From the NCBI RefSeq assembly GCF_001984175.1, contig NZ_MTQP01000039.1, positions 1 to 64,000 of the forward strand: DNA of 64,000 bases, read 5' to 3'. The notes under the pieces are model-generated. The model had not been told where the DNA came from. It did no database searches and saw only the letters and a list, made by a program, of their open reading frames with translations. Shown piece by piece: positions 14,527 to 40,715 of this stretch. Positions within the stretch are counted from its first letter, which is position 1, and every line of letters starts with the position of its first letter. Made by a program: the position numbers and the translations under genes. This stretch comes from Saccharothrix sp. ALI-22-I (GTDB taxonomy: Bacteria > Actinomycetota > Actinomycetes > Mycobacteriales > Pseudonocardiaceae).

Positions 14527-14595
14527 TCCTGGTGTCCTCTGCGTGAGGTGAGATCCGGTGTCGGCGGGCTGCGCAATTCGGGGGTCCCGAATTCA

Positions 14596-19056: not shown

Positions 19057-19137
19057 GGGGCAGTCACTCCTCTGCCCGGCCCCTGGCGCAGCCGGGCCGG
19101 CGTGGTGTGCGGGATCGGTGTCGGCCTGCCACCGCGG

Positions 19138-25250: not shown

Positions 25251-26442
25251 GTGGGGCGCCAAAAGTCGGCCATATGGTCTGACCTGCGGGTTAGGCGGCT
25301 GTGGGTTCGTACTCGTTGATCAGGCCGCCGAGGACTGGTCGGCGGCGTATCGATGTGCAGCCCTGTTCTGCGCTCGGGTGGTCGCGTCGGGGTGGGGTGA
25401 GTTGTCGGGCTTGGTGGGGTCGGCGGTGGTTGTAGTGGGCCACATAGCGCTGCAGCACCGCCCGCAGGTGGTGTTCGTTGATGATGGGCAGGCGGTCGGT
25501 GGCTTCGCGTCTGACGGTGCCGACGAACCGTTCGGCGTAACAGTTTGCCCAGGGGCATCGTGGCGGGATTTTCACGACCTGGATGCCGGTGTCGGCGAGG
25601 ACGGCGTCGAACGAGGTGGTGAACTGGCCGGCCCGGTCGCGGACGAGGAACTGGAAGTCGTCAGCTCGGTCACCCAGGTCCATGAGTAGGTTGCGGGCCT
25701 GTTGGGTGGTCCATGCCCCGTCGGGGTTGGTGGTGGCGCCGAGGATGTGGACGTAGCGTGTGGCGATCTCGATCACGAAGAAGACGTAGACCCGCTTGAG
25801 GGTGAAGGCACAGTCAACGTGGAAGAAGTCGCAGGCCGACATGCCGGCGGCTTGGACGCGCAGGAATCGCCGCCAGGAGGTGTCGCTATCACGCCTGGGT
25901 GCGGGCGGGATGCGCAGGCGCTTGAGCACGCGGCGGACGGTTGACGCGGCTACCCGGTGGCCGAGCTTGAGCAGCTCGCCCTGGATCCGGCTGTAGCCCC
26001 AGCCGGCGTTCTCCCGGGCCATTCGCTCGATCAACGCCACGATGGTGTGGCCGATCGGGGGTCGGCCGGTGCGGTTCGGGTAGGTCCACTTCTTCGCCAC
26101 CAGGCGACGGTGCCATCGCAGTACGGTGCCCGGCGTCACCAACCGGTGTTGCCGTAACCAGTCGGGTAGGCGTCGCACCAACACGGCGAGCACAGCGCGG
26201 TCGGCCCAGTCCAACCGCGGGCGAGAGTTGGTCCGGCGCAGCACGGCGACCTCGTGCCGCAGCACCAGCAACTCCACGTCCTTGGCCGCCGATGACCGGC
26301 CGAGCAGCACCAACCAGCCGACGAGCCGAACCAAGATCAGATACAGCAGTCGTAACGCCACGTCCCACGATCATGCCTCTACCACCCATGATGCGCGATC
26401 GCTGCAGCTCAGCGTCCCAATGCAGAGTTCTGGCACCCCACA
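25250..26442. mobile_element. insertion sequence copy B, about 1.19 kb, apparently intact
   Basis: The ends are TGTGGGGCGCCAAAAGTC (25250) and GAGTTCTGGCACCCCACA (to 26442), inverted to each other with few mismatches. The single transposase gene reads from the right end leftwards on the minus strand. The left flank is an EamA transporter stump and the right flank an unrelated short tail, so host sequence was lost around it. No direct target duplication was found. Confidence 0.85.
25291..26361 (-). CDS. DDE integrase-core transposase (IS3/IS481-like), intact
   Basis: The 356-residue protein starts [20 protein letters not shown] and has the helix-turn-helix block [20 protein letters not shown], a second DNA-binding segment [20 protein letters not shown] and the rve core with Asp in FFHVDCAFTLKRVYVFF, Asp in LVRDRAGQFTTSFDAV and Glu in ANCYAERFVGTVRREATD. 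It ends LGGLINEYEPTAA about 40 bases inside the element. Related proteins abound in actinomycetes. All three catalytic positions appear present, so it could still act on copy A and the miniature copies. Confidence 0.92.
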   Translation of the reverse strand: MALRLLYLILVRLVGWLVLLGRSSAAKDVELLVLRHEVAVLRRTNSRPRLDWADRAVLAVLVRRLPDWLRQHRLVTPGTVLRWHRRLVAKKWTYPNRTGRPPIGHTIVALIERMARENAGWGYSRIQGELLKLGHRVAASTVRRVLKRLRIPPAPRRDSDTSWRRFLRVQAAGMSACDFFHVDCAFTLKRVYVFFVIEIATRYVHILGATTNPDGAWTTQQARNLLMDLGDRADDFQFLVRDRAGQFTTSFDAVLADTGIQVVKIPPRCPWANCYAERFVGTVRREATDRLPIINEHHLRAVLQRYVAHYNHRRPHQARQLTPPRRDHPSAEQGCTSIRRRPVLGGLINEYEPTAA

Positions 26443-26670: not shown

Positions 26671-27339
26671 GTGGATCACGACAGCACTTTCGGCGCCGTC
26701 CTGTTCGACTTCTCCGGCACGCTGTTCGACGACACCTCCGTCCTCGACCCCGCCGCCATCGCCGCGACCGGCGTCGATCTCGGCGGGTCGACCGCCGTCG
26801 AGGTGGTCCGGCGGGTGCTGACGCACGTCGACTCGCCTGCCTCCCTGGAAGCACGCCGGGGTTGCGACGTGTCGCAGGAGGCCCACCGCGCGGTGTGGAC
26901 GCGGCTGATCGCCGAATCCGGGCCGTTCGCGCCGGATCTGGTCGACGCCGTCTACGCCGCGTTGACCGATCCGGCCGCGTGGACCCCGTACCCCGACACC
27001 GCGGTTGTGCTGGGGGCGTTGCACGAGCGGGGCGTCCGAATCGGTGTGCTGAGCAACATCGGCTGGGACATCCGGCCCGCGCTCGCCGACGCCGGCGTGC
27101 TGGATCTGCTCGACGCGGTGGTGTTGTCGTGCGAGCACGGCGTGGAGAAGCCCGATCCGGCGTTGTTCGCGTTGGCGTGTGAGCAGATCGGTGTGGCTTC
27201 CGGTCGGGTGTTGTACGTGGGCGACGACCCGGTCAAGGACGGCGCCGCGGTGCGGGCGGGTCTGCCGGTGTACCTGTTGCCCGCCGAGCGTTCGGTGGAC
27301 CGTGAACGAGGGTTGGGCACGGTGCTGCGGCTGGCGTGA
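26671..27339 (+). CDS. HAD-superfamily phosphatase, probable cluster dephosphorylation enzyme
   Basis: The 222-residue product has HAD motif I (VLFDFSGTLFDD), motif II near VLSNIGWD, the Lys of motif III (HGVEKPDPALF) and motif IV (YVGDDPVKDGAAV). Position +2 of motif I is Ser instead of the usual general-acid Asp, an oddity for a phosphatase. In validamycin pathways a HAD enzyme (VldH) removes the 7'-phosphate after coupling, and that is the inferred role here. It lies tail-to-tail with the MDR gene with a 1-base gap and marks the left edge of the cluster. Start at GTG 26671, probably leaderless. Confidence 0.82.
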   Translation: MDHDSTFGAVLFDFSGTLFDDTSVLDPAAIAATGVDLGGSTAVEVVRRVLTHVDSPASLEARRGCDVSQEAHRAVWTRLIAESGPFAPDLVDAVYAALTDPAAWTPYPDTAVVLGALHERGVRIGVLSNIGWDIRPALADAGVLDLLDAVVLSCEHGVEKPDPALFALACEQIGVASGRVLYVGDDPVKDGAAVRAGLPVYLLPAERSVDRERGLGTVLRLA

Positions 27340-27340
27340 T

Positions 27341-28330
27341 TCACGGCCGTACCAGCACCTTGCCCAGGTACCGGGTCGCCGTCAACTCCCGCAGTACATC
27401 CGGGAGGTCGACCAGGTCGACCTCCCGCGTCACCAGGCGCTCCACCCCCACCCGGTCGTGCGCCAAAGCCTCCAACGCCAGTGCGAAATCGGTCGGACTG
27501 GTGCCGTAACTGCCGCCCACGACCACCGGCTTGCCCCGCCACCGCACCGGAACGGCCAGCTCGCCGCGTCGCACCCCGTCCAGGTCGCAGTCCAGCCCCG
27601 ACAACCGGTCCCCGGCACGGGTGCCGCCGTAGAGCAGCACCAACCCACCGGGACGGACCAGGCGCAACGCCTCCTCCAACAGCTCCGGGAACACGAAACT
27701 GGCCGCCACCACGACCACGTCCTGGCTGTCGGGGGCGACCCGGCGCGCCACCTCGTCCGGCAGGATTCCGTTGTCCCGCAGGAACCGCAGCCGGTCGGGA
27801 CTGCGGTTGCGCAGCGCCGCCACCGCGCCCGCCCGCCGTGCCAGCGCCGTGATCAGCACCCCGGCCACACCCGCGCCCAGCACGCACACCGCCGTGCCGC
27901 GCAGGTCCGTGCCGCGGTGCCGGGCGGCGGTGGTCAGGCAGTGCGCCGCGCACGCCGCGGGCTCGGCGAACACCAGGCGCCGAGCGGACACGCCCGACGG
28001 GGCGACCGGCAGCGCCCGCGCCACGGCGTCCTCCTCACCGCACACCCACAGCGCACGGGCGAACCCGGTCCCACGTCGCACCGGCGGGTTCGGGTCCAGG
28101 CACACCCGGGTGCCCGGCGGCAGCCGCGCCGTGGAACTGTCCACCACCTCGCCCACCAGTTCGTGCCCGAACTGGCCAGGGCCGCCGCGGGTGCCCGCGA
28201 CCTCCTTCAGGTCGGAGCGGCACACGCCCATCAGCTCGGTGCGCACGAGCACCCCGTGCGCACCCTCGTGCCGCACGGGCGGTTCGGCGGACAGCACCGG
28301 TCCCGCCGCCGACAGCTGCACCGCGCGCAC
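27341..28330 (-). CDS. zinc-type MDR alcohol dehydrogenase of the cyclitol cluster
   Basis: The 329-residue medium-chain dehydrogenase has the catalytic zinc ligands (Cys in LMGVCRSDLKE, GQFGHELVGEVV) and a Rossmann motif VCVLGAGVAGVLITALA. The four-Cys structural zinc lobe is largely missing, so it is a compact form. The GTG start directly abuts the stop of the aminotransferase gene, so the two are co-translated. In validamycin-type clusters a comparable dehydrogenase (ValN class) reduces an enone or ketone of the cyclitol before amination or coupling. Assignment to that step is by context. Confidence 0.82.
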   Translation of the reverse strand: MRAVQLSAAGPVLSAEPPVRHEGAHGVLVRTELMGVCRSDLKEVAGTRGGPGQFGHELVGEVVDSSTARLPPGTRVCLDPNPPVRRGTGFARALWVCGEEDAVARALPVAPSGVSARRLVFAEPAACAAHCLTTAARHRGTDLRGTAVCVLGAGVAGVLITALARRAGAVAALRNRSPDRLRFLRDNGILPDEVARRVAPDSQDVVVVAASFVFPELLEEALRLVRPGGLVLLYGGTRAGDRLSGLDCDLDGVRRGELAVPVRWRGKPVVVGGSYGTSPTDFALALEALAHDRVGVERLVTREVDLVDLPDVLRELTATRYLGKVLVRP

Positions 28331-29599
28331 CTACAGCATCTCCAACGCCTCGCCGAACCGGTCGGCGATCAGGTGGGCGTCCTCGACGGTCAGCACCAGC
28401 GGCGGGCGCAGCTCGATCACGTTGCCCTCGCCGTGCTCGGACACCCTGGTGATCACCCCGCGCGCGGACAGCGCCTTGTTCAGCGCGGCGGCCAGGCGCG
28501 GCGAGCGCGACCCGTCCGGCTCGGCCAGCTCCACGCCCAGCATCAGGCCGACGCCGCGCACCTCGTCCAGGCACGGGTGGTCGGCGCGCAGCGCGGTCAG
28601 CCGCTCCAGCAGCACCGCGCCGGTGGTCCGCACGGTGGCCAGGAACTCCGGCTGCCGCACGATCTCCAGCGCCACGGTCGCCGCGGCGGCGGACAAGGTG
28701 TGGCCGCCGTAGGTGAAGCCGTGCATGGACCTTGGCATCCCCACCAGGTGTTCCTCGGTGAGGATCGCGGCCAGCGGCAGGCCGCTGCCGGTCAGCCCCT
28801 TGGCGGTGGTCAGGATGTGCGGGCTGACCCCGAAGTGCTCGGCGGCGAAGAGCCTGCCGGTGCGGCCCATGCCGGTCTGGTTCTCGTCGAAGATCAGCAC
28901 GATCTCCCGCGCCTCGCAGAAGTCCTTGAGCCGCTGCAAGTAGCCCGGTGGAGGCACGACGTTGCCGCCTACGCCGCTGATCGGCTCGATGATCATCGCG
29001 GCGACGCTGCCGGAGGAGGCGTAAGCGATGAAGTCCTCGATGCGGTCGACGCACCACAGCCCGCACGAGTCCGGTGTCTGGCGGTAGAAGCAGCGGTGGC
29101 AGTACGGTTCGGGTACCCGCACCGCGCCGGGCATGTGGTAGGGGAACGGAGCGCGCATCCGCGACGTGCCGTTGTAGCTGGCGGTGGCGATGCTCTGGCC
29201 GACGTGCCCGCGGAACGGCACGATCACGTCGCGCTTGCCGGTGTGCCACTGGGCGATCTTGATCGCGCCCTCGTTCGCGGTGGAGCCGCTCGCGCTGCGC
29301 AGGTTGACCCGCGTCAGGTTCGCCGGGCTCAGCTCCACCAGCTGCCTCATCACCTCGTTGGTCGGACCGGTCTGGAACGACGAACTGGCGAACACCAGGT
29401 CGTCCGCCTGCTCCTTGACCGCCGCGACCACGGCCGGGTGGTTGTGCCCCAGCACCAGGTTGAACGTGCCGGACACGCAGTCGAGGTACTCGCGGCCGGT
29501 GGAATCCCACACCCGCACGCCCTCACCGCGCACCAGCAGCGCGTCACCCAGCTCGTAGTACGCGTGGTCGCGTGGGTCGATGCCGGTGAGCGGGTTCAT
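28331..29599 (-). CDS. class III PLP aminotransferase, ValM/VldL-like
   Basis: The 422-residue protein has the class III fold signatures: SGSTANEGAIKIAQWHTG, the PLP-pyridine Asp in LIFDENQTGMGRTGRLF and the Schiff-base Lys in ILTTAKGLTGSGLPLAA. Two CxxC-like pairs (YCHRCFYRQTPDSCGLWC) are shared with this subgroup. In validamycin biosynthesis ValM aminates valiolone/valienone phosphate to give the amine that becomes the bridging nitrogen. Its ATG overlaps the stop of the pseudoglycosyltransferase gene by one base (TGATG), which supports joint action. Confidence 0.88.
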   Translation of the reverse strand: MNPLTGIDPRDHAYYELGDALLVRGEGVRVWDSTGREYLDCVSGTFNLVLGHNHPAVVAAVKEQADDLVFASSSFQTGPTNEVMRQLVELSPANLTRVNLRSASGSTANEGAIKIAQWHTGKRDVIVPFRGHVGQSIATASYNGTSRMRAPFPYHMPGAVRVPEPYCHRCFYRQTPDSCGLWCVDRIEDFIAYASSGSVAAMIIEPISGVGGNVVPPPGYLQRLKDFCEAREIVLIFDENQTGMGRTGRLFAAEHFGVSPHILTTAKGLTGSGLPLAAILTEEHLVGMPRSMHGFTYGGHTLSAAAATVALEIVRQPEFLATVRTTGAVLLERLTALRADHPCLDEVRGVGLMLGVELAEPDGSRSPRLAAALNKALSARGVITRVSEHGEGNVIELRPPLVLTVEDAHLIADRFGEALEML

Positions 29600-31026
29600 C
29601 AGCGCAGCCCCAGGCTCTCCAACTGGTTGTCCACCCACCGCTCCAGCGTCCAGGGCCGTGCGGTGTCGCGGCGCGCCCGCGCGGCCTCGGCGCGCCGCTC
29701 CGGCGGTGCGAGCAGCCCGGCGGCGATGGCCTCGGCCTGCTCCACGACGTCCTGCGGGTTCACCGTGCGGCACACCGGGCCCAGGATCTCCGCCGCGCCC
29801 GCCATCTCCGACAGCACCACGTCCGCGTCGCGCCGGTTGACCAGCGGGGCCTCGAATACGCTGAGGTTCTGACCATCCACGGTGGAGTTGAACACGAGCA
29901 GGTCGGCCCGTTCGAAGCAGCCGAAGGTGTGGTTCACGTCGTTGTCGCAGTGCGTGCGCACGGAGTCCTCGCCCAGTTCCGCGTTGGCCGCGGTGACCTC
30001 CTCCTCGACTCGTCGCACGTAGTCGGCGTTGGCCTGGACGTAGAGCCGGTTGGGGTTCATGCGCACCAGCATCCGCGTGCCGCGCAGCTCCGGGTTGTCC
30101 TGCACCGCTTTGACGAACGCCCGCACCGCGCGCCAGGCGTTCTTGATCGGATCGGTCCGTCCTGAGTGGACGACCAGTCGGTGCTGACCTGCCCACTCGG
30201 CGATGCCCTCGGGCAGCTTGGAGTCGCGTCGCGTCAACGTCTCCGGGCTGTAGCCGAGGGGCTGGGTGCGCACCCTCGTGGTGCGCCCGCGCAGGCGGAC
30301 CACCGCGGCGGAGTGGTCGACCTCGGCGTCGGGCAGCAGGTCGGCCACGCAGGACAGGAAGTTCGCCGTCCACCGGCTGGTGAAGAACCCGATGACGTCG
30401 GCGGCCAGCATTCCCTCCAGCACCTCGACGCGGATGGGCTTGGGCAGGATGCGCCAGTAGTCGGCCGACGGCCACGGGATGTGCACGAACAGCAGGATCG
30501 GCGCGTCCGGCCGGTGTGCCCTGATCCGCGCGGGCACGCACACGAGCTGGTAGTCGTGCACCAGGTACACCGGGTCGGGGTCGTCGGCGGACCGGGTGAC
30601 CATCTCGTCCGCGAAGTCGGCGGTGAACTCGGCGAACCGCTCCCACGCGCCCCGCGTCGCCGGGCCGAAGGTCGGGGTGGTCCAGCGGTCCCAGCCGTAG
30701 TTGTTGCCGGCCCACATCAGCTCGGCGGTGAGGAAGTCCTGCACCACGCGGAACGTCTCGCGGTCGTGACGCAGGTGGTGGACCCGGATGGTGCGGCCCG
30801 ACGGCAGCTCCACGACCGTGCCGTCGGGGTGCTGCTCGGCCGCGCGGTGGTCGTCGTCGGTGTCGGCGCTGACGATCCACGACACGTCCAGGTACCCGGC
30901 CTGCTCGGCGACGACGTTGCCGGTGCCGCCGGGAGCCAGCCACGCCCGCAGCTCACCGGTGTCCTCGTCCGGCGCGTAGGTGACGACGGCCCGCTTGCTT
31001 GCCAGGAACAGGTGCTTGTCGGTCAA
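29599..31026 (-). CDS. vldE-like: pseudoglycosyltransferase, VldE/ValL-like (GT20 fold)
   Basis: The 475-residue protein is related to trehalose-6-phosphate synthase but carries features recalled from VldE/ValL: the N-terminal FLASKRAVVTYA and WLAPGGTGNVVAEQ, the block AGNNYGWDRWTTPTFG, VYLVHDYQLVCVPA, VHSGRTDPIKN in place of the OtsA RxDYxKG segment, and NSTVDGQNLSVFEAPL. VldE joins GDP-valienol and validamine 7-phosphate through a non-glycosidic C-N bond. The TTG start at 31026 follows GGAGG and overlaps the SDR stop (TTGA). It is the diagnostic gene for a pseudo-oligosaccharide product. Confidence 0.9.
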   Translation of the reverse strand: MTDKHLFLASKRAVVTYAPDEDTGELRAWLAPGGTGNVVAEQAGYLDVSWIVSADTDDDHRAAEQHPDGTVVELPSGRTIRVHHLRHDRETFRVVQDFLTAELMWAGNNYGWDRWTTPTFGPATRGAWERFAEFTADFADEMVTRSADDPDPVYLVHDYQLVCVPARIRAHRPDAPILLFVHIPWPSADYWRILPKPIRVEVLEGMLAADVIGFFTSRWTANFLSCVADLLPDAEVDHSAAVVRLRGRTTRVRTQPLGYSPETLTRRDSKLPEGIAEWAGQHRLVVHSGRTDPIKNAWRAVRAFVKAVQDNPELRGTRMLVRMNPNRLYVQANADYVRRVEEEVTAANAELGEDSVRTHCDNDVNHTFGCFERADLLVFNSTVDGQNLSVFEAPLVNRRDADVVLSEMAGAAEILGPVCRTVNPQDVVEQAEAIAAGLLAPPERRAEAARARRDTARPWTLERWVDNQLESLGLR

Positions 31027-31937
31027 CGGTCCTCCACTGCTCGGTGCGTCTGGTCCAGTGCTTCGGACAACCTCCGCGCGTTCTCGTCCACCCCCAGGGG
31101 CTCCAGCCCGACCAACTCCGGCAGCCGGGCTGCCCGTTCGCTGTGCAGGCAGGCGTTCTCCGGGCGGCAGGAGTAGGGGCCGTCGGCGCGCTTGGAGGGC
31201 CGCAACAGGCTCGCGTCCAGGTCGAGCACGGCGGCGATGCGCAGCGCCCACTCGTGCCGCGTCAGCCGATCCGGCCCACCCAGGTGCAGCAGTCCCGTGC
31301 GCCCGGCGGCCAGCAGCGCCGCTGTCCAGGCGGCCACGTCGTCCACGTGCACCGGGGTGTTCCAGTGGTCGTCCGGTACCCGGAGCTCGCGGCCGGCACG
31401 GAGGGTGCGGACACAGGTCGTGGCGAAGTTGGGCCGCAGCCCGTCGGGATCCCAGCCGTACACCAGGCTCACCCGCAGCACCAGCGCCGCGCCGGTGTCG
31501 AGCAACGTGCGCTCGGCGGCGAGTTTGGCCGTGCCGTAAGCGTTGGCGGGACTGGTCGGGTCGGACTCGCCGCAACTGGGCCGGGTGCCGTCGAAGACGT
31601 TGTCGGTGGAGATCAGCAGGACCGGGCGGCCGTCCGCGGCGTCGGCGAGGTTGCGAGCCCCACCCGCGTGTGCGGCCCTCGCGGCTTCGGGGTTGGCCTC
31701 GCACCAGGTGATGTCGGAAGGACCGTGCACCACGACCACGGAGTCGGGGGAGTGTTCGCGCACCGCGACCCGGCAGGCGTCGGCATCCCGCACGTCCAGC
31801 GGATACCAGGGCAGCCCGGCCGCGGACGCGGCGGCGGGACGTCGTCGTGAGCAGACCACCGCGTGGTCGCCCCGCCCGAGCAGGTGCGCGGCGATCGTGC
31901 CGCCGAGGTAGCCGCTGCCGACCACGAGCGCCTTCAC
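31023..31937 (-). CDS. extended SDR (RmlD-like) reductase/epimerase
   Basis: The 304-residue protein has the NAD(P) motif VVGSGYLGGTIAAHLLG, the catalytic region LLISTDNVFDG and NAYGTAKLAAE (YxxxK) and later HVDDVAAWTAAL, as in dTDP-4-dehydrorhamnose reductases. The GTG at 31937 follows GGGGAG. It is translationally coupled to the pseudoglycosyltransferase gene. A cyclitol keto-reduction or epimerisation is likely. An enzyme of this type is not part of the minimal validamycin set as I know it, so it may define the product of this cluster. Confidence 0.82.
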   Translation of the reverse strand: MKALVVGSGYLGGTIAAHLLGRGDHAVVCSRRRPAAASAAGLPWYPLDVRDADACRVAVREHSPDSVVVVHGPSDITWCEANPEAARAAHAGGARNLADAADGRPVLLISTDNVFDGTRPSCGESDPTSPANAYGTAKLAAERTLLDTGAALVLRVSLVYGWDPDGLRPNFATTCVRTLRAGRELRVPDDHWNTPVHVDDVAAWTAALLAAGRTGLLHLGGPDRLTRHEWALRIAAVLDLDASLLRPSKRADGPYSCRPENACLHSERAARLPELVGLEPLGVDENARRLSEALDQTHRAVEDR

Positions 31938-32097
31938 CACACCGCTCCCCGCCCCGGCCCGCCTCGGCCGTCGGTGTCGGGGCGTACCGGGCGTCGCGGC
32001 GGTCGGTACGCCTGCTGGTCGGCGCTGAGGTTCTGGGAGGAGCGGAGGTTGCCGCAGACGCACCAACGACCGCGGTGCCGCTCGGCGCAGCGCCCCC

Positions 32098-33261
32098 TCA
32101 CCGTGCCACCGCCGCGGGTGCGCGCACCACCGCGGACGCGACGGCCACCACCAAGCCGCCGCACGCCACGGCGGTCAGCGCCGTGGTCAACCCCCACGCC
32201 CCGGCCAGCACGCCGACCACCGGCGGGCTGACCAGGAAACCCAGGTACGACAACGTGGTGACGGCGGCAATGGCACCCGGACGGCGCGCGTCGTCGACCG
32301 CCGCGCCTGCCAAACCCAGCAGCGTCGGCAAGGCCGGGGCCAGTCCCACGCCCGCGACCGCGAAGCCGGCCAGCGCGAGCACCGACGGCAGCCCGGCCGC
32401 GGCGGACAGCGCCGCCGTGCCGACGCCGACCGCGCCCAACACGCCCCCGGCCAGCAGCAGCACCCGGCCGGAGACCCGGTCGCCCCGCCACTGGGCCAGC
32501 AGCCGACCCGCGAACAGGCCGGACATGTAGCACGCGGGGGCGGCGCTGCCCAGCAGCGGACCGGCACCCAGGCTCTCCTCCAAGTGCAGCGCACCCCACT
32601 GCTCGACGGCGTTCTCCAGGAACAGCACTACCGCGGCGAGCAGCCCGAACGCGATCAGTAGCGGCGCGGTCGAGCGGTGTGCCCCCGGTTCGGCGGCCGG
32701 AGCGCGCCACCCGGAGCGGTCCACCGCCAGGAGCGCGCTGAGCAGTACCAGGGCGGCGATCACCAGCAACACCGGCAACGGTCCCGCGCCGCCTTGCCGG
32801 GCCAGGCCGACGGCGGGCGCGGCCAGCACCATGGCCAGCGGGGTCGCGGCGTGGACCTTGTTGAACAGCCGCACACCGTGGCGCGCTTCGTGGGCGGCGG
32901 TGGTGGTGTTGAGGGCGACCTCGATCGCCCCGGAGGTGGCGCCCACCAGCAGCAACGCCCCGGCGAAGGTCAGCGGCGAGGTCGCCAGGCCCGGCAGCGC
33001 GCAGGCCACCGCGAACGCCGTCAGCACCACCGGCAGCGTCCACGCCCGCAGCGCGCGGACCAAGGGCGCGGTCGCGACCATGGCCGGCAGCGCACCCGCC
33101 GGGATGCCGAACAGGGCGAGGCCGAGCTGGGTGTCGGTCGCGCCGACCTGATCCTTGAGCCCCGGCAGCAGTGCGGCCCAGCTGCCCCAGAACAGGCCCC
33201 AGCTCGCCGCTGCGGCGATCAACCCCACGTGCAGGGGACGTCCGGCTGGGATGACCGGCAC
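32098..33261 (-). CDS. MFS transporter of the cyclitol cluster
   Basis: About 12 hydrophobic segments in 387 residues (VGLIAAAASWGLFWGSWAAL, then LVRALRAWTLPVVLTAFAVA and so on), with FNKVHAATPLAMVLAAPAVG typical of the fucose-permease/sugar-porter-like MFS branch. The GTG at 33261 has GGGAGGG 6 bases upstream; an ATG at 33276 overlaps that site and is less likely. It is divergent from the cyclase gene and first on the left arm of the cluster, so export of the product (self-protection) or uptake of a precursor is probable. Confidence 0.82.
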   Translation of the reverse strand: MPVIPAGRPLHVGLIAAAASWGLFWGSWAALLPGLKDQVGATDTQLGLALFGIPAGALPAMVATAPLVRALRAWTLPVVLTAFAVACALPGLATSPLTFAGALLLVGATSGAIEVALNTTTAAHEARHGVRLFNKVHAATPLAMVLAAPAVGLARQGGAGPLPVLLVIAALVLLSALLAVDRSGWRAPAAEPGAHRSTAPLLIAFGLLAAVVLFLENAVEQWGALHLEESLGAGPLLGSAAPACYMSGLFAGRLLAQWRGDRVSGRVLLLAGGVLGAVGVGTAALSAAAGLPSVLALAGFAVAGVGLAPALPTLLGLAGAAVDDARRPGAIAAVTTLSYLGFLVSPPVVGVLAGAWGLTTALTAVACGGLVVAVASAVVRAPAAVAR

Positions 33262-33374
33262 GAATGACCCTCCCATCAGTCACGATCCGTGCAACGGTTG
33301 TCTACTGAAAGTTACTCTGGCACGGTTGGAATGACAACACGTGCCCTTTTCGGGTGATCCCCGAGAGGAGAACG
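33262..33374. promoter_or_regulatory. divergent promoter region of the cyclitol cluster
   Basis: These 113 bases separate the leftward genes (MFS, SDR, pseudoglycosyltransferase, aminotransferase, MDR) from the rightward genes (cyclase, fused kinase, nucleotidyltransferase). Both promoters must lie here. AACGGTTGTCTACTGAAAGT is AT-richer than its surroundings. No cluster-situated regulator is encoded nearby, so control is probably from elsewhere. Confidence 0.6.
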
Positions 33375-34532
33375 ATGGACCGTCCCGGCTATCAGATCCG
33401 TGACAACATCTCCCTCCCCGACAGCCTCGGCCCTGTGCGCGTCGACGTCACACGCGACGACTCGTACCGCATTCACGTGCTGGCCGACGTGGACAGCGCG
33501 GTCCGAACGCTCCTGGCCGAACTCGACGACCGCCACGCCGTGGTGATCACCGACCAGGTGGTGGCCGACCTGCACGCGGGGCGCTTCACGTCGGCGCTGG
33601 CCGACCGGGGCCTGCTGCTGGGCGTCCACGCGATGCCCGCGGGTGAGAAGAGCAAGTCGCTCACCACCGCCTTCGAGCTCATCGACTGGCTGGCCGAGGT
33701 CGACTTCGCCCGCCGCGACGTGGTGGTGGCGCTCGGCGGTGGCGTGGTGGTCGACACCGCCGGCTTCGTCGCCAGCGCCTACATGCGCGGCGTGCCGTAC
33801 GTGAACGTGCCGACCACGTTGCTGGCCCAGGTCGACGCGGGCATCGGGGGCAAGGTCGCGGTGGACCACAGCGAGGCCAAGAACCTCGTGGGCGCCTTCT
33901 ACCAGCCCAGAGCGGTGATCTCCTGCCTGGAGCACCTGAGCACGCTGGACGCCCGTCAGGTCCGCTCCGGGCTGGCCGAGGTGGTCAAGAAGGCCGTGAT
34001 CGCCTCACCGCAGCTGTTCGAGTTCATCGAGGAGCGCGTTGACGAACTGGTGGCGTGCGCGTCTCCGGCGATCGGCGTGCTGGTGCACGCCGCCGGCGCG
34101 ATCAAGACCGAACTGGTCAGCCGCGACCCCTATGAGGCAGACCTGCGCCGATCGCTGAACTTCGGGCACACCACGGGTCATGCCGTCGAGACCGTCACCG
34201 GTTACGGCCCTGTGCTGCACGGCGAGGCCGTCGCGTTCGGCATGGCGGTGGCCGTGGACGTGGCCCGCGACCGCGGGCTGGTCGTGCCCGGGGTGGCCGA
34301 CCGGATCATCGGGCTGATCCGGCGGCTGGGCCTGCCCGTGACGCTGCGCGAGCTCGCCGGCCAACCGGCCGTCGACGACGTGCTGGCCGCGATGACCAAG
34401 ATCCGGCAGATCCGCGACGGCAGCCTGCGTTTCGTGCTGCCCGTGGAGCCGGGCACCACGATCATCGCCGAGGACGTCACCGAGGACGAGGTTCGCCGGG
34501 CACTGCTGCGCGACCGGACGGCCGCGCCGTGA
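33375..34532 (+). CDS. sugar phosphate cyclase (dehydroquinate-synthase superfamily)
   Basis: From ATG 33375 (AGGAG 5 bases upstream) the 385-residue protein has the cyclase landmarks: NAD-binding ALGGGVVVDTAGFVAS, NVPTTLLAQVDAGIGGK, KNLVGAFYQPRAV, Zn-ligand Glu in GLAEVVKKAV and Zn-ligand His residues in LNFGHTTGHAVE and LHGEAVAFGM. The context demands a C7-cyclitol (valiolone-type) product from sedoheptulose 7-phosphate. However, the motifs are closer to DHQ and 2-deoxy-scyllo-inosose synthases than to the ValA/AcbC pattern as I remember it (VAVDHSEAKN replaces KTGVN). The exact product is therefore uncertain. Confidence 0.88.
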   Translation: MDRPGYQIRDNISLPDSLGPVRVDVTRDDSYRIHVLADVDSAVRTLLAELDDRHAVVITDQVVADLHAGRFTSALADRGLLLGVHAMPAGEKSKSLTTAFELIDWLAEVDFARRDVVVALGGGVVVDTAGFVASAYMRGVPYVNVPTTLLAQVDAGIGGKVAVDHSEAKNLVGAFYQPRAVISCLEHLSTLDARQVRSGLAEVVKKAVIASPQLFEFIEERVDELVACASPAIGVLVHAAGAIKTELVSRDPYEADLRRSLNFGHTTGHAVETVTGYGPVLHGEAVAFGMAVAVDVARDRGLVVPGVADRIIGLIRRLGLPVTLRELAGQPAVDDVLAAMTKIRQIRDGSLRFVLPVEPGTTIIAEDVTEDEVRRALLRDRTAAP

Positions 34533-36667
34533 GCCCGCTGTGGACGTTGGACGCCGGTGGCACCACCACCACCGCCACCGGGCCCGGCGGGCGGCTGCGC
34601 AGCGGGTCGGTCAACCCGGCCTCGGTCGGCGACGAGCGGGCGGGCAGCACGCTGCGGTCGTTGTTCGCCGACCTCGGGGCCCGGCTGCGCGGCGAGCCCG
34701 CCTTGGGCTGGATCGCCACGGCCACGCTCGACCCGGTCGCTCCCCGGCCCGAGCTGGACCGGCTGCGCGCGCTGGCCGTCGACGCGGGGCTGCGCGGACG
34801 GGCGGTGGTGTCCAACGACGCGGTGCCCTGGCTGGTCGCGCCGCCGCTGTCGGGCCGGGGAGCGGTCGTCGTGTGCGGGACCGGGTCGGGGTTCCTGGCC
34901 TGCGACGGTGTGAGCGCGCCGACGCGGGTGGGCGGCTGCGAGTACCTGGGCAGCGACGAAGGCAGCGCGTTCGACATCGGGTTGGCCGGACTGCGCGCCG
35001 CGGTGCGCGCGGGGGACGGTCGGGGCCCGGCGACCGCGCTCGCGGCGGCGTTCCGGCCGACGCCCGCGCTGTTGGCGCGCGATCTGGCGGCGCGGGCGTT
35101 CCCCAAGGCCGATGTCGCCGCCCTGGCTCCGGTGGTGTGCCGGACGTGGCTGGAGGGCGATGACGTGGCGGCGTCCGTGGTGGCGCGTGCGGTGGACGAG
35201 CTGGTGGTCGGTGTCGCCGCCGCGGCGCGGTCCGCGGGTTTGGTGGACGGGTACCGGGTCGCGGCGGGCGGGGGTGTGCTGCGGGGCAGTCCCGACCTGC
35301 TGGCGGAGTTGGACCGGGCGCTGCGCGCGGCGCTGCCGGTGATCGAGGTCGTGCCGGTGTTCGACCCGGACGACGCGGTGCTGGGCGCGCTCACCGCTTG
35401 CGCCCGCGACGGCGACCTCGTCCTGCCGCCCGGCGCCGAGGGGTCCTGCGCCTGGCTGCTGGACCTCGCGCCCGACCGGGTCGTCCCGGCGTCGAGGTCG
35501 GGCGATCCCGCACCGGAGGTGTCCGGGCCGGGGGATTCCAGCGCGGAGCCCCGGGTAGCGGAGCCCCGGGTAGCGGTGGTCCCGGAACAACACGCTTCGA
35601 GCACATCGACTGCCGGACCGGCGGCTTCCGGGCCGGTGGCGGCTGAACCGGCGGTTTCCGGACCGGCGGAACCGAGGCCGAGCACGCAACGGCCGGCGGT
35701 CACCGCGCCCGTGGCGGTGGGGTTGTGCCTGGCCGCGTGGGGTGGCGCGGGGCTGGACGCCGCGATCACCGCCGCCGCCGAGTCCGGTGTGGACGCCGTG
35801 GACCTGCCGACCGACACCACTTCCGGGTTGGTCGACGCCGATCGCTGGGCCGACGACGCGGACTACCGGGCCGACCTGCGCGCCGCGCTGCGCCCGGTCG
35901 TCGTCACCTGCGTCAGCAACAGCCGCGACGCCCAACTCCTGCTCGGCCCGCACGGCCCGCACACCGATCCCGTGCTGCGCGGCAGCCCGGACGAGAAGCG
36001 GGCGCACGCGTTGCGGCACGCCTCGCACGCCGTGCGGATCGCCGCGGACCTCGGCGCCGGGCAGGTCCGGCTCATGCTGGGCGTGCCCGACCTGGCGCGT
36101 TGGCTGTCCTGGTGGCACAGCGACGTCGGGTGGGACGACAATATCGCCGCCTGGCGCGAGGCCGCCGATCCCTTGCTCGACCTGGCTGCCGAGCACGGCG
36201 TGGAGCTGCTCGTGGAACCCCATCCCAAGCAGGTCGCCCACGACCCGCCGAGTACGCGAACCCTGCTCGACGCCGTCGCCGGGCACCGCGCGTCGGTGCG
36301 AGTGTGCCTGGACATCGCCAACATCGCCGCCACCGGGCACGACCCGCTGGCCTGCGTGCGCGGCTGGGGCGCCGACCTGGGCGCCGCGCACGCCAAGGAT
36401 TTGCAGCGCTGGACCGGCGCGGACGTCCCGACCGGTGCGGGCTGGTCCCGCTACGGGCCCGGACCCGCGATCAGGTTCCGCGCCCTGGGCAGCGGCGACC
36501 TGCCGTGGCCCGCGCTGATCGCCGCGCTGCTCGACGAGGACTTCACCGGGGTGCTCTACGTCGAGCACGAGGACGCCCTGCTGCCGCGGCGGCAGGGCGT
36601 CGCCAACTCGGTGCGGCTGCTGCGCGCGCTGCTGCCCGACCGCCAACCGCAAGGGAGGACGTGGTGA
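34529..36667 (+). CDS. fused BadF/BcrA-type sugar kinase and TIM-barrel sugar epimerase
   Basis: The 712-residue protein joins two enzymes. Residues 1-310 are an ASKHA kinase (phosphate-binding LDAGGTTTTATG, VVCGTGSGFLACDG, GSDEGSAFDIG, AAGGGVLRG). About 320-395 is a Pro/Ala/Ser-rich linker. Residues 398-705 are a xylose-isomerase-like barrel with metal-ligand positions in LLVEPHPKQV, VCLDIANIAA, AAHAKDLQRW and VLYVEHEDALL. Validamycin pathways need a C7-cyclitol kinase and an epimerase; here both could sit on one chain. Its GTG overlaps the cyclase stop (GTGA), which suggests successive steps. Roles are inferred from fold and context. Confidence 0.85.
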   Translation: MSPLWTLDAGGTTTTATGPGGRLRSGSVNPASVGDERAGSTLRSLFADLGARLRGEPALGWIATATLDPVAPRPELDRLRALAVDAGLRGRAVVSNDAVPWLVAPPLSGRGAVVVCGTGSGFLACDGVSAPTRVGGCEYLGSDEGSAFDIGLAGLRAAVRAGDGRGPATALAAAFRPTPALLARDLAARAFPKADVAALAPVVCRTWLEGDDVAASVVARAVDELVVGVAAAARSAGLVDGYRVAAGGGVLRGSPDLLAELDRALRAALPVIEVVPVFDPDDAVLGALTACARDGDLVLPPGAEGSCAWLLDLAPDRVVPASRSGDPAPEVSGPGDSSAEPRVAEPRVAVVPEQHASSTSTAGPAASGPVAAEPAVSGPAEPRPSTQRPAVTAPVAVGLCLAAWGGAGLDAAITAAAESGVDAVDLPTDTTSGLVDADRWADDADYRADLRAALRPVVVTCVSNSRDAQLLLGPHGPHTDPVLRGSPDEKRAHALRHASHAVRIAADLGAGQVRLMLGVPDLARWLSWWHSDVGWDDNIAAWREAADPLLDLAAEHGVELLVEPHPKQVAHDPPSTRTLLDAVAGHRASVRVCLDIANIAATGHDPLACVRGWGADLGAAHAKDLQRWTGADVPTGAGWSRYGPGPAIRFRALGSGDLPWPALIAALLDEDFTGVLYVEHEDALLPRRQGVANSVRLLRALLPDRQPQGRTW

Positions 36668-36671
36668 CACC

Positions 36672-37796
36672 GTGCACGACGTGAGGGCTGCCCTGCTCGC
36701 CGGAGGGCTCGGCGAGCGGATGGGCAGGTTGACCGACGACACCTGCAAACCGCTGGTGCCCTACGCGGCTTCGTGCCGCCTGATCGACTTCAGCGTCGAC
36801 AACGCGGCGCGCTCGGGCATCGACGAGGTGGTGCTGATGTCCCTGCACCGCGAACGCGACCTCATCGACCACATGGTGCGGCACTGGGATGGTTCCGGCA
36901 TCAAAGTCCACTTCGGACCGCACGACGAGCTGGTCCGTTCAGGCGCGACCGGACGACTGCCCGAGCGACCGCCCGAACGCGGAACCGCGGACGCGCTCCT
37001 CGCCAACGCCGAGTACGTGTTCGCCCCCGGAGCTCGCGACGTCCTGGTGCAGCACGCCGATCACGTCTACTCCTTCGACTACGGGCCGATGGTCGCCGCG
37101 CACCGGCGCAGTGGCGCGGACGCCACGATCGGCGTGCAGCGCATCGAGCGCCGTTATGTGCGGTTGTTCGGCATGGTGGAGGTCGATGACGACCTGGTGG
37201 TGCGCCGGTTGGTGGAGAAGCCCTCCGAGCCGACATCGGACCTGGTGTTCACCGCGTTCTGCTTGTTCCGCGCCGACGTGCTGCGCCACGTGCTGGACGA
37301 GCTGGCCGCGTTGGGCGAGGACGGCTGGCAGCACGACATCAGCCGTGACGTGCTGCCGGCGATGATCGCCTCCGGGCGGCGCGTGCTGGCCCACCCGATC
37401 AGCGGCTACTGGGCCGACATCGGCACCGTGGAGCGCTACCACGCCGAGCACCTGAAGCTGTTGGGTCGGCCGCACCCGCTGCCGCCGCACGCGCTGCCCA
37501 CGACACTGGCGGGCCTCACACCGCGCTACGACCCGGAGCTCGACAGCCTGCTGCCGGGCGAACCGCCGCGCGGCGCGGACGTCCGGTCCAGCGTGCTGTT
37601 CCCCGGCGCGGTCGTGGAGCCGGGCGCCGTGGTGCACCGGTCGGTGGTGCTGCCGGGCGCGGTGGTGGGCACGGGTGTAGTGGCCCTGGAGACGGTGGTG
37701 GGAGCGGGGGAGCACCTGACCGGCTCCCGCACGGGTTTGACTGAACTGGCGCCGGTGCGGCGGCGCAGGCCCAGACGGCCGACGCAGCCTACGTGA
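36672..37796 (+). CDS. GlgC-like sugar/cyclitol 1-phosphate nucleotidyltransferase, ValB-like
   Basis: The 374-residue protein starts at GTG 36672, four bases after the previous stop. It has the nucleotidyltransferase motif LLAGGLGERMGRLTDDTCKP, the RGTADAL substrate loop, VLVQHADHVYSFDYG, LVEKPSEPTSDL and the GYWADIGTVERYH block of ADP-glucose pyrophosphorylases. A left-handed beta-helix tail (SSVLFPGAVVEPGAVVHRSV) follows. ValB/VldB activates valienol 1-phosphate in validamycin biosynthesis. The last 15 or so residues (RRRRPRRPTQPT) are encoded out of frame by DNA belonging to the following GH43 signal-peptide region, so the natural C-terminus was probably altered by a recombination joint. 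Confidence 0.85.
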   Translation: MHDVRAALLAGGLGERMGRLTDDTCKPLVPYAASCRLIDFSVDNAARSGIDEVVLMSLHRERDLIDHMVRHWDGSGIKVHFGPHDELVRSGATGRLPERPPERGTADALLANAEYVFAPGARDVLVQHADHVYSFDYGPMVAAHRRSGADATIGVQRIERRYVRLFGMVEVDDDLVVRRLVEKPSEPTSDLVFTAFCLFRADVLRHVLDELAALGEDGWQHDISRDVLPAMIASGRRVLAHPISGYWADIGTVERYHAEHLKLLGRPHPLPPHALPTTLAGLTPRYDPELDSLLPGEPPRGADVRSSVLFPGAVVEPGAVVHRSVVLPGAVVGTGVVALETVVGAGEHLTGSRTGLTELAPVRRRRPRRPTQPT

Positions 37797-39074
37797 TGGG
37801 GTACTTCAAGGAATCGCTGAACGGTTCGGGCGGCGTCAACGCCGTCCACCTCGCCGTCAGCAACGACGGTCTGGAGTGGACCCCGCTCAACGACAACAAC
37901 GCCATCCTCACCCCCGACCGCAGGCACCAAGGGCATCCGCGACCCGTTCATCACCCGGCTCAACAACGGCACGTGGGTCGTGCTGGCGACCGACATCCCG
38001 GTGGGCGGCTCGTTCACCAAGCCCAACCAGAACATCCACGTCTGGACCTCGCCCGATCTGGTGAACTGGTCGGCCGACCGGCTGCTCAACGTCAACAGCA
38101 CCAACACGACGTCGTTCAGCTGGGCGCCCGCGGTGCACTGGGACCCGTCGCGCAACGCCTACGGCGTCACGTTCTCGACCATCCCCCCGGGCGGCTCGCA
38201 CGCGGTGATCTCGGTGTCCTACACCACCGATTTCGTCACCGCGACCGCGCCGGTCGTGTTCTTCGACCCCGGGTCGGCCGTCATCGACTCCCACGTGATC
38301 ACAGGCGTGAACGGGCTGAACTACCTGTACTACCGCAACGACGCGACCACCGGGATCCTCGGGGCGCGGTCGACGTCACTGCAGCCGGGCAGCTTCACCC
38401 GCTACAGCGGCGCGATCGGTGACAACCGGTGCACCGAGGCGCCGACGCTGGTCAAGTCGCTGACCGCGAACAAGTGGTGGCTGTGGGCCGACACCTACTG
38501 CCCCAACGCGAAGTTCGACCTGTGGGAGGGCGACCTCGCCGCGCCGACGTGGACCAAGGTCGGCCGGCAGTCCTACACCGCGCCGCTGAACGGCAAGCAC
38601 AACACCGTCCACCCGATCACCGCCGCCGACCGCGACCGCCTGCTCGCCCGCTACGGCGGCACGAGCTGGAACCGGGTCAAGTCGCTCAACTTCCCGGGCC
38701 ACTACGTCCGGCACGCGAGCTCGATCGGCCGCATCGACGAGCAGCCGTTCGAGCCGCACCAGGACTCGCAGTGGCGGCTGCGGGCCGGCCTGTCCGACCC
38801 GAACGCCGTGTCGTTCGAGTCGGTCAACAGGCCCGGCTACTTCCTGCGGCACCAGGGCTTCGAGGTCAAGCTCATGCAGAACGACGGCACGTCGACCTTC
38901 GCCGCCGACGCCACGTTCACCCGGGTCGCCGGTCTCGCGGATTCCTCCTGGTCGTCGTTCCGCTCGGTCAACTACCCGACCCGCTACCTGCGGCACTCGG
39001 CCTTCGTGCTGCGCATCGACGAGATCACGAGCGCGACCGGCCGCGCCGACGCGACCTTCCGCGTCGTCTACTGA
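37748..39074 (+). pseudogene. GH43-type arabinofuranosidase/xylosidase with CBM42, start lost and frameshifted
   Basis: The frame entering at 37748 gives AGAAAQAQTADAAYVMGYF, the end of a signal peptide and start of a mature enzyme, but the start codon and signal core are missing. After NAILTP (about 37918) one extra C in a C-run shifts the frame; from GTWVVLATDIPVGG onward it continues to 39074. The catalytic domain (NIHVWTSPDLVNWSA, FSWAPAVHWDPSR) is followed by an AbfB/CBM42 domain (VKSLNFPGHYVRHASSIGRI, SFRSVNYPTRYLRHS). The gene has lost its start and is probably not expressed as an enzyme. Confidence 0.85.
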
Positions 39075-39091
39075 CCCCTGGGGACAGGCAG

Positions 39092-39735
39092 ATGTTCCGC
39101 TCACCACGAGCGCCGCGTTGGCGCCGCCGCCGTCCGGCGGCGGCGCTGATGGGGTCCGTGCTCGCGCTCGGCCTCGTCGCGGCCGGCGTCACCACCACGA
39201 TCTCCCAGGCGCAGTCCTCCGGTCCTGCGGTGTTGGACAAGGCCGCGATCCTGAGCGCCAACGGGCTCGACGAGCCGGAGTGATACACGAACAACATCCC
39301 GTTCGTGGACACGCCGGACGACACGATCGACCGCGTCTACTACTACCGGTGGAGCACGTACAAGCGCGCGCTGCGCTACACCGTGCCCGGAACCGGGTAC
39401 ATCTCCACCGAGTACGACAACCCGGTCTGGTACTCGGGCGGCAACACCGCCGGCAGCAACGAGGCGCACTCGGCGCTGGTGGACGCGGCGGGCTACCACA
39501 TCCAGGACGGGCGCTGGCTGCGCAACCGGGACTTCGCGGGCGACTACCTGGACTTCTGGCTGCGCGGTGGCGGAAACTTCTCCGCGCGCAACTTCAGCGA
39601 GTGGATCGCGAGCGCCGCCTACCAGCGGTGCCTGGTCACCGGTGACGACACGCAGCTCAAGGTGTACCTGCCGCAGTTCATCGCGCTGTACAAGAAGTGG
39701 GACTCGAACTTCACCAACGACACATCGGTGGGCTG
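39092..39735 (+). pseudogene. secreted MGH1-like glycoside hydrolase, in-frame stop and 3' truncation
   Basis: ATG 39092 begins a signal peptide (basic RSPRAPRWRRRRP, then a hydrophobic run ending SQAQSSG). At codon 64 a TGA stands where relatives have Trp (DEPE-[stop]-YTNNIPFVD). The same frame then continues coherently (IDRVYYYRWSTYKRALRY, YHIQDGRWLRNRDF, DYLDFWLRGGG). Near 39735 the reading switches to a different enzyme's C-terminus. One nonsense change plus a large deletion make this a relic of an (alpha/alpha)6-barrel hydrolase. Confidence 0.75.
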
Positions 39736-40490
39736 TCGGAGCCGTGGCTCGGTGATGCGATCTTCTTCGAGGAGCCGCTGGGCGTGTCGGCCCCGGCGGG
39801 CAACACGTATGCGGGGATGCAGGGGCAGACGATCAGCAAGGGCTGGTTCTGGCACCCTTCAACGCCGACCGAGGGGTTGATGAGCAGGGCGGACATCCTG
39901 AACCACCTCGCCGACCTGGAACCGAAGTACACCTCGTTCATCCTCAACTGCCCGCCCAACCGCAACGGTCGCCTGGACACCAACATCGTCAACCGCCTGG
40001 CCGAGGTCGGCGCGGCCTGGAACCCGAACACCTCGCGCCCGCCGCTGCCCGTGCAACAGGCGCGTTGCGAGTTCCCGATCACCCCGGTCAACGCCTACGC
40101 CACGGGCGCGCGCACGGGCGAGGGGCCGCTCAACGCGATCGACGGGCTCAGCGACGTCCGGTTCGAGACGTGCTGGTCGACGTGGGGCCTGCCGTCGCCG
40201 TTGCCCCAGACGATCACGGTCGACCTGGGGGCGGTGTGGAGCAACGTCTCCACCCTCGAATACCTGCCCAAGCAGTGGAACCGTTCCAACTCCACCGACG
40301 GCGACATCACCTCGGCGACCATCTCCACCAGCACCGACGGCGTCACGTTCAGCACCGTGGCCACCGCGAACTGGGCCGGCGACCGCAAGACGAAGATCGT
40401 CGAGTGGCCGGGTCGCGACGTCCGCCTCGTCCGGGTCCTGGTCACCGCGGCGACCGGTGGCTACGCGAACATCAGCGGCCTGGCCGTCCC
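39730..40490 (+). pseudogene. C-terminal part of a GH29 alpha-L-fucosidase with F5/8-type C domain
   Basis: From LSEPWLGDAIFFEEP the reading has GMQGQTISKGWFWHP, ILNHLADLEPKYTSFILNCP and GRLDTNIVNRLAEVGAAW, the usual C-terminal strands of family 29 fucosidases. A discoidin-like domain follows (LNAIDGLSDVRFETCWST, ISTSTDGVTFSTVATANW). The catalytic N-terminal domain is absent; it was joined here to the preceding hydrolase fragment by deletion. Confidence 0.7.
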
Positions 40491-40715
40491 TCCGTGGTGT
40501 CGCGGTTCCCCGCCGAGAACACCGTGTACCGCCTGCAGGCGCGGCACAGCGGGAAGGTCGTCGACGTGTACCAGGCCCGCACCGCGAACGGGACGGACGT
40601 CCTGCAGTGGCCGTGGCTGGGCAACGCCAACCAGAAGTGGACTTTCATCCCGACCGGGACAGCGGTGAACGGGATCCCGTCTTGCGTCGGGGACGACGAC
40701 ATGCGGAACGGCTAG
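40490..40715 (+). pseudogene. ricin-type lectin domain remnant
   Basis: After another frame change the sequence encodes VYRLQARHSGKVVDVYQART and GTDVLQWPWLGNANQKWTF, one beta-trefoil unit of a RICIN-type carbohydrate-binding domain. It then ends prematurely at TAG 40713-40715. A full domain has three such units, so this is the truncated tail of a secreted enzyme, overlapping the stop of terC by 3 bases on the opposite strand. Confidence 0.65.

What the first reader, a model, noticed from the sequence alone, without database searches (positions are those of the whole stretch)
26671..37796. Compact validamycin-type C7-cyclitol pseudo-oligosaccharide cluster
Sequence: nine adjacent genes encode a sugar phosphate cyclase, kinase-epimerase fusion, GlgC-like nucleotidyltransferase, VldE/ValL-like pseudoglycosyltransferase, class III aminotransferase, MDR and SDR oxidoreductases, HAD phosphatase and MFS exporter, with overlaps or tight spacing and one divergent promoter region. 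Knowledge: VldE-type enzymes make C-N-linked pseudodisaccharides, and ValA/B/C/M/N and VldH supply the partners. Inference: the locus makes an N-bridged pseudosugar (possible trehalase or glycosidase inhibitor). No ValG-like glucosyltransferase and no VOC-type epimerase is seen, and there is an extra SDR, so the product need not be validamycin.
Basis: partly seen in the sequence, partly recalled or inferred. Interest (0 to 1): 0.88.

Follow-up and report, generated by a model that had tools for sequence, protein, structure and literature searches.

The report
Validoxylamine-type pseudosugar gene cluster
A soil bacterium carries a nine-gene cluster that very probably makes a nitrogen-linked sugar mimic that blocks trehalase; a close relative is reported to make such a compound by a known alternative route, so it is a sound but fairly ordinary find.

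Summary
In detail: nine intact genes lie at 26671-37796. The GT20 protein is a VldE/ValL orthologue (68.7% identical to VldE, 17 of 17 checked VldE site residues kept), not a trehalose-phosphate synthase. Two points need correction. The 'extra' SDR is the orthologue of the SDR upstream of the VldE gene in a validamycin-type cluster. The cyclase is not ValA-like: it groups with the cyclase of a syntenic Actinosynnema mirum cluster, which the literature (title and citing sentence seen, the rest recalled) ties to 2-epi-valiolone synthase and an 'alternative pathway to pseudosugars'; validoxylamine A is listed as an Actinosynnema product. Validamycin's ROK kinase and VOC epimerase are replaced by a fused BadF-type kinase and TIM-barrel protein; ValG is absent. 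Best explanation: an EVS-fed validoxylamine A pathway, a new member of a known kind. Beyond that, of 32 VldE-type loci 29 have this kinase type and 3 the ValC type. The validamycin back-end genes nest inside the larger group while its front-end genes do not, which suggests that validamycin's front end was swapped in as a unit.

The parts
26671..27339 (+). HAD-family phosphatase; predicted to remove the 7'-phosphate of the coupled product (ValO/VldH role); GTG start, an ATG lies upstream at 26617
   Evidence: Pfam PF00702; 61.3% identical to the HAD protein of L023; syntenic in A. mirum
27341..28330 (-). MDR oxidoreductase, in the ValN place
   Evidence: Pfam ADH_N; 54.6% to the L023 protein
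28331..29602 (-). class-III aminotransferase, in the ValM place (TTG at 29602 or ATG at 29599 as start)
   Evidence: PF00202, 4.4e-86; 67.4% to L023
29599..31026 (-). GT20 pseudoglycosyltransferase, VldE/ValL orthologue (TTG start)
   Evidence: 706 bits to VldE 3vdm; 68.7% identical to VldE; 17 of 17 VldE site residues kept
31023..31940 (-). RmlD-type SDR, in the ValK place
   Evidence: PF04321; 58.8% to L023 SDR; GTG start
32098..33276 (-). MFS transporter, probable exporter
   Evidence: PF07690; 71.2% to the A. mirum MFS at the same place
33277..33374 (.). divergent intergenic region between the two transcription units
   Evidence: sequence; aligned with 7 relatives, partly conserved
33375..34532 (+). 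sedoheptulose 7-phosphate cyclase of the presumed 2-epi-valiolone synthase (EVS) group
   Evidence: PF01761/PF24621; tree; 80.0% to A. mirum; lacks the DKK motif of the AroB/aminoDHQS-like rows
34529..36667 (+). fused cyclitol kinase (BadF/NagK-like, about aa 1-310) and TIM-barrel presumed epimerase (about aa 396-700)
   Evidence: PF01869 and PF01261; model of the second half with mean pLDDT 91.4, nearest folds AtHYD, SCO6571, then isomerases and ketose 3-epimerases
36672..37796 (+). GlgC-like nucleotidyltransferase, ValB-type (GDP-valienol formation predicted)
   Evidence: PF00483; TIGR02091 below its cut-off; 50.1% to the L023 protein; tree

Best explanation
The locus is a validoxylamine A (or very close analogue) biosynthetic cluster of the A. 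mirum type. The cyclase turns sedoheptulose 7-phosphate into 2-epi-valiolone; the fusion protein phosphorylates C7 and epimerises C2; SDR and/or MDR steps give valienone 7-phosphate, where the C5 stereocentre that separates EVS from EEVS products is lost, and then valienol 7-phosphate. The GlgC-like enzyme makes GDP-valienol; MDR and aminotransferase make validamine 7-phosphate. The GT20 enzyme couples the two through a C-N bond, the HAD phosphatase removes the phosphate, and the MFS protein exports the product. Shown here: gene content, orthology, conserved VldE site, synteny with A. mirum. Inferred: every catalytic step and the product.
For: GT20: 706 bits to VldE versus 164 bits for the best other structure; all 17 residues that I took from PMC3441724 (Results section, part 1 of 2 read) kept, against 10 of 17 in the genome's own OtsA, which lacks the three guanine-contacting ones; tree. 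The SDR-GT20-AT-MDR set of the validamycin-type locus L023 is kept in the same order at 54.6-68.1% identity. Gene-for-gene synteny with G083, whose single 8,248,144-base contig has the size published for A. mirum DSM 43827 (PMC3035213 passages). G083 has one VldE-type gene at E<=1e-100 and 4 PF01761 cyclases, of which the one at 2.216 Mb lies in this cluster. [quoted passage not shown]
Against: No chemistry from this strain. The 2012 and 2013 A. mirum papers are not held, so 'EVS = Amir_2000' and 'validoxylamine A comes from this cluster' rest on recall, a title and one citing sentence. The link of the 2.216 Mb cyclase to Amir_2000 is by gene-number interpolation, not by a locus tag; the listing counts one 'amir2000' in PMC4426668, but its main text shows none. 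Nearest solved folds of the TIM domain include a hydratase (AtHYD, rank 1) and a dehydratase (AsbF, rank 17), so it could be the dehydratase rather than the epimerase. The NT is below the cut-off of each of the 16 NCBIfam models it matches, so its nucleotide is not shown. The cyclase passes the aroB cut-off.
Confidence: 0.82

Rival explanations
1. Same pathway, but the acceptor keeps its C5 hydroxyl: the EVS stereochemistry is preserved as valiolone, aminated to valiolamine 7-phosphate and coupled to GDP-valienol, giving a hydroxylated validoxylamine with possible glucosidase-inhibiting action.
For: EVS plus a 2-epimerase would give valiolone 7-phosphate directly (inference from the chemistry of the named enzymes). 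EVS-type cyclases are present in 23 of 23 BadF-kinase loci in which a cyclase was reached, which a lost stereocentre would not demand.
Against: A ValN-type reductase is present and would be superfluous. Validoxylamine A is the compound listed for Actinosynnema (PMC7570522 passage). EVS- and ValA-type front ends sit on the same SDR-GT20-AT-MDR back end, which argues for one shared intermediate.
Confidence: 0.08
2. The cluster makes a longer pseudo-oligosaccharide, with a glycosyltransferase encoded elsewhere adding sugar to validoxylamine.
For: In L023 the ValG-type gene lies about 2.8 kb past the VldE gene, and such a gene could be unlinked here.
Against: No ValG-like hit in the window or in the fetched stretches (at most about 10 kb per side, some cut short) of the 29 BadF-kinase loci. 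The rest of the genome was not searched for glycosyltransferases.
Confidence: 0.06
3. An ordinary trehalose-phosphate synthase operon with a second shikimate-type DHQ synthase.
For: GT20 and DHQ_synthase are the formal Pfam families, and the cyclase exceeds the TIGR01357 aroB cut-off (321.8 versus 305).
Against: The genome has an OtsA and an AroB on other contigs. The GT20 protein is 32.9% identical to that OtsA over 331 aligned residues. The cyclase separates from AroB and lacks its DKK motif.
Confidence: 0.02

Closest known systems
Actinosynnema mirum DSM 43827 pseudosugar cluster (cyclase recalled as Amir_2000, 2-epi-valiolone synthase; validoxylamine A)
   Same: All nine genes, same order and orientation; 67.5-81.8% identity for the eight single-domain proteins (L038); the same kinase-epimerase fusion
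   Different: The HAD gene lies about 2 kb from the MDR gene in A. mirum and 1 base from it in the window
Validamycin cluster (val/vld; yardstick L023, S. hygroscopicus NBRC 13472, GT20 94.7% identical to VldE)
   Same: Divergent front and back units; SDR-GT20-AT-MDR order; NT and HAD present
   Different: ValA-type cyclase, ROK kinase and VOC protein instead of EVS-type cyclase and BadF/TIM fusion; ValG-type GT2 gene present; its MFS gene is not matched by the window's MFS protein
Acarbose cluster (acb)
   Same: Cyclase, 7-kinase, 2-epimerase, dehydrogenase, nucleotidyltransferase and a pseudoglycosyltransferase (PMC9200736, two sections read)
   Different: AcbS resembles GT5 and not GT20; AcbM is a ROK kinase (passage); no sequence comparison with acb proteins was made here
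Noviherbaspirillum clusters L026 and L027 (Betaproteobacteria, product unknown)
   Same: GT20 48-49%, aminotransferase 55-57%, SDR 44% identity
   Different: ValA-type cyclase and ROK kinase, no BadF/TIM hit

Membership tests
VldE/ValL-type pseudoglycosyltransferase | sequence grouping with VldE rather than OtsA | tested here: met
   34 rows; 32 VldE-type rows including VldE and the window against own OtsA and L030, 100/100 (long branches flagged); 68.7% to VldE
VldE/ValL-type pseudoglycosyltransferase | ligand-site residues of VldE (17 positions taken from PMC3441724) | tested here: met
   17 of 17 identical
VldE/ValL-type pseudoglycosyltransferase | couples GDP-valienol with validamine 7-phosphate | not testable with these tools
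   needs enzyme assay
[quoted passage not shown]
   37.7% identity; opposite side of a 100/100 branch
Validamycin biosynthetic cluster | ROK kinase ValC and VOC epimerase ValD | tested here: not met
   no ValD hit in the window at 1e-6; the only ValC hit is a separate ROK protein at 49190-49759
Validamycin biosynthetic cluster | glucosyltransferase ValG | tested here: not met
   no hit in the window at 1e-6
EVS-fed validoxylamine cluster (A. mirum type) | cyclase in one clade with the A. mirum cyclase | tested here: met
   80.0% identity; 5-row clade 99/97 within a 13-row clade 86/91
EVS-fed validoxylamine cluster (A. mirum type) | same gene content and order | tested here: met
   nine of nine genes, same orientation
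EVS-fed validoxylamine cluster (A. mirum type) | cyclase product is 2-epi-valiolone; end product validoxylamine A | not testable with these tools
   needs assay and LC-MS
3-dehydroquinate synthase (AroB) | grouping with actinobacterial AroB and its DKK motif | tested here: not met
   it nevertheless passes the TIGR01357 cut-off

The most novel reading that the evidence does not exclude
The industrial validamycin cluster is itself the exception. Its back end (valK-L-M-N) descends from EVS-type clusters like this one, and its front end (cyclase, kinase, epimerase, nucleotidyltransferase) was replaced as one unit across the divergent promoter by a ValA/ValC-type set. Pseudosugar pathways would then be built from interchangeable front and back halves that meet at a common intermediate, probably valienone 7-phosphate, with the BadF kinase/TIM epimerase pair as a non-ROK, non-VOC way to reach it.
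Probability: 0.62. Interest if true: 0.5.

Novelty: new member of a known kind. Interest (0 to 1): 0.33.

Why it matters
It gives a compact nine-gene source of a probable trehalase inhibitor without the glucosylation step of validamycin, and a second enzyme set (EVS-type cyclase, BadF kinase, TIM-barrel epimerase) for making the valienone half. If the swap of front ends is real, parts of the two types could be combined in heterologous production, and products of uncharacterised VldE clusters could be predicted more safely.

Tried and rejected
Rejected: ordinary OtsA; ordinary AroB; the SDR as an extra gene; a chance assembly of sugar genes. No use: promoter scan of the divergent gap; paper search for AtHYD; attempts to read Asamizu 2012, Osborn 2017, Kean 2014 and Asamizu 2013 (not held). 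Acarbose AcbO and AcbM sequences were not obtained, so homology of the fusion with them is not tested. A search of 354 genomes of the family of L030 (Micromonospora) for the epimerase gave 4 hits, none shown to be the acarbose locus. A search of the three genomes holding L023, L026 and L030 for the fusion at 1e-8 found 0 of 3; the tool warns that an empty answer without a positive control shows little.

Against the swap reading: single-gene tests reject the one-clade alternative only for the aminotransferase (p-AU 0.004); SDR 0.302, MDR 0.164 and GT20 0.323 do not. The rejection at 4.1e-5 comes from the concatenation (27 rows), was made after I had seen the GT20 tree, and the two Noviherbaspirillum rows have unusual composition. 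In the NT tree the L023 branch is long (0.88) and the split rests on three rows of the other type. Loci whose cyclase was not reached (L013, L017, L020, L024, L040) were labelled EVS in these trees by their kinase type. PMC12041759 (Discussion read) describes the cyclases beside ValL homologues as similar to valA and does not mention the split.

Rows dropped: L021, L045, L046 from the cyclase tree (34 of 37 used); L002, L021 and L033-L037 from the GT20 tree; L007, L013, L015, L017, L021, L028 from the concatenation (27 of 33 used); L007, L011, L015 have no usable NT (30 of 33 used); L030, one of 28 loci, left out of the VldE-type count as OtsA-like (26%).
Full report
What is there. HAD reads rightward; MDR, aminotransferase, GT20, SDR and MFS leftward; cyclase, kinase-epimerase fusion and nucleotidyltransferase rightward. 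A 98-base gap separates the two large units. The window lies in a 10.3-Mb genome of 69 contigs.

The GT20 enzyme. The best solved relatives are VldE entries at about 706 bits; the best other structure scores 164 bits. Of 17 residues that I took from PMC3441724 (Results part 1 and mechanism section read) as GDP- or cyclitol-binding, the window protein keeps 17, while the genome's own OtsA keeps 10 and lacks the three guanine contacts. In a tree of 34 rows the window protein lies among 32 VldE-type rows, separated from own OtsA and L030 at 100/100.

A yardstick. Locus L023 (Streptomyces hygroscopicus NBRC 13472) carries a GT20 that is 94.7% identical to VldE. Around it lie HAD, VOC, ROK kinase, NT, ValA-type cyclase, RmlD-type SDR, aminotransferase, MDR, family-2 glycosyltransferase and MFS genes, the content expected of a validamycin cluster. 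Gene names are from papers (PMC3424136 passages; PMC12041759 introduction and discussion); assigning each name to an L023 gene by place and family is mine. Identities of window to L023: GT20 68.1, aminotransferase 67.4, HAD 61.3, SDR 58.8, MDR 54.6, NT 50.1, cyclase 37.7%. So the SDR belongs to the validamycin set.

The cyclase. The genome has two PF01761 proteins, this one and one on contig C50. In a tree of 34 cyclases (37 available) the window falls in a 23-row group (86/85) with the A. mirum-type cyclases. Six AroB- or aminoDHQS-like rows are next (99/96), and five ValA- or DDGS-side rows lie across a 100/100 branch; the program warns of long branches there. In a 15-row alignment the three AroB/aminoDHQS-like rows have DKK where the nine rows of the window's group have IR[QEK]IRDG. 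The label aminoDHQS is my guess. NCBIfam would still call the protein aroB (321.8 bits, cut-off 305). PMC5133447 (passages) warns of this: confirmed EVS enzymes would be taken for DHQ synthases from the tree alone. That the more distant 10-row half of the group (54-59% identical) also makes 2-epi-valiolone is inference.

The A. mirum link. G083 has one contig of 8,248,144 bases, the published size of A. mirum DSM 43827 (PMC3035213 passages). Its cluster around 2.216 Mb matches the window gene for gene. Its other cyclases lie at 3.866, 5.018 and 6.251 Mb. The MAA genes amir_4256-4259 (PMC10384724 passage) fit the 5.018 Mb cyclase by interpolation, which places tag 2000 nearest to 2.216 Mb. That Amir_2000 is the 2-epi-valiolone synthase is recalled (Asamizu 2012, not held). 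PMC7570522 lists validoxylamine A as an Actinosynnema product and cites a 2013 paper on an alternative pseudosugar pathway in A. mirum DSM 43827 (passage and reference list; the paper itself not held). This is the main reason to call the locus a new member of a known kind.

Kinase-epimerase. The kinase half is BadF/NagK-like, whereas the L023 kinase is ROK, as ValC and AcbM are said to be (PMC9200736 passage). The halves are fused in 10 of 25 loci in which both were found and in the window. These 11 all lie in one 12-row clade of the back-end tree (99/99); the twelfth, L011, is cut by its contig end. The second half gave a model of mean pLDDT 91.4. Its nearest solved folds are a 2-hydroxy-3-keto-glucal hydratase and SCO6571, then isomerases and ketose 3-epimerases, with a dehydratase at rank 17. 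Residues E172, D204, H230 and E288 are invariant in 26 sequences; I recall such a quartet as the metal and acid-base set of this fold. Epimerase is favoured because the domain stands where validamycin has its VOC epimerase; dehydratase remains open.

Distribution and the swap. Of 32 VldE-type loci (27 of the 28, and 5), 29 have the BadF kinase and no ValC-type hit, and 3 (L023 and the two Noviherbaspirillum) have the ROK kinase and no BadF hit. A cyclase was reached in 26 of 32: 23 EVS-type, all with the BadF kinase, and 3 ValA-type, all with the ROK kinase. The epimerase was found in 26 of the 29; in L007, L011 and L015 the contig ends at the kinase (tblastn at 1e-10 on fetched stretches only). 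In the concatenated tree of SDR, GT20, aminotransferase and MDR (27 rows) L023 sits with L025 and L029, both EVS-type, at 100/100, and a single EVS-type clade is rejected (p-AU 4.1e-5). Each of the four single-gene trees shows the same trio at 99-100 (SH-aLRT), but only the aminotransferase alone rejects the alternative (0.004; SDR 0.302, MDR 0.164, GT20 0.323). In the nucleotidyltransferase tree (30 rows) the 27 BadF-type rows part from the three others at 100/100, with a long L023 branch. The simplest reading is one replacement of the front unit in the validamycin lineage. I saw no statement of this in the listings, passages and sections that I saw of the held library, but the most relevant papers are not held.

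How rare. With the GT20 protein, 5 of 397 genomes of the order match at E<=1e-100, own genome included. With the cyclase, 2 of 394 of the class match at 1e-80, own included.

Verdict. It is best filed as an EVS-fed validoxylamine A cluster of the A. mirum type. The locus is ordinary in kind; the mosaic history of the validamycin family is the more interesting by-product.

Noticed in passing
L059 (G918), L060 (G793), L061 (G856): Micromonosporaceae stretches of 19 kb with a cyclase (55, 56 and 42% identical to the window's), BadF kinase and TIM epimerase but no GT20, aminotransferase or nucleotidyltransferase hit; L059 and L060 also have an SDR hit. They may make a single C7-cyclitol.
   Followed up: partly
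L026:2935-13620 and L027:6280-17080: VldE-type clusters in two Noviherbaspirillum species (Betaproteobacteria) with ValA-type cyclase and ROK kinase, outside Actinomycetota.
   Followed up: partly
window 37793-40668: Secreted carbohydrate-active genes (AbfB domain, MGH1-like glycoside hydrolase) split over several frames just past the cluster; they look degraded.
   Followed up: no
window 25291-26361 and 21369-23237: Integrase-core transposase gene next to the cluster and what looks like part of a similar copy further left, with a GH16 gene between them.
   Followed up: no
window 13471-20655: Two AP_endonuc_2 TIM-barrel proteins, a GMC oxidoreductase and a GH15 protein on one strand, possibly a sugar-oxidation operon.
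   Followed up: no
L028:6865-13740: In the Streptacidiphilus sp. 4-A2 record several cluster genes match only in pieces, possibly assembly errors.
   Followed up: no
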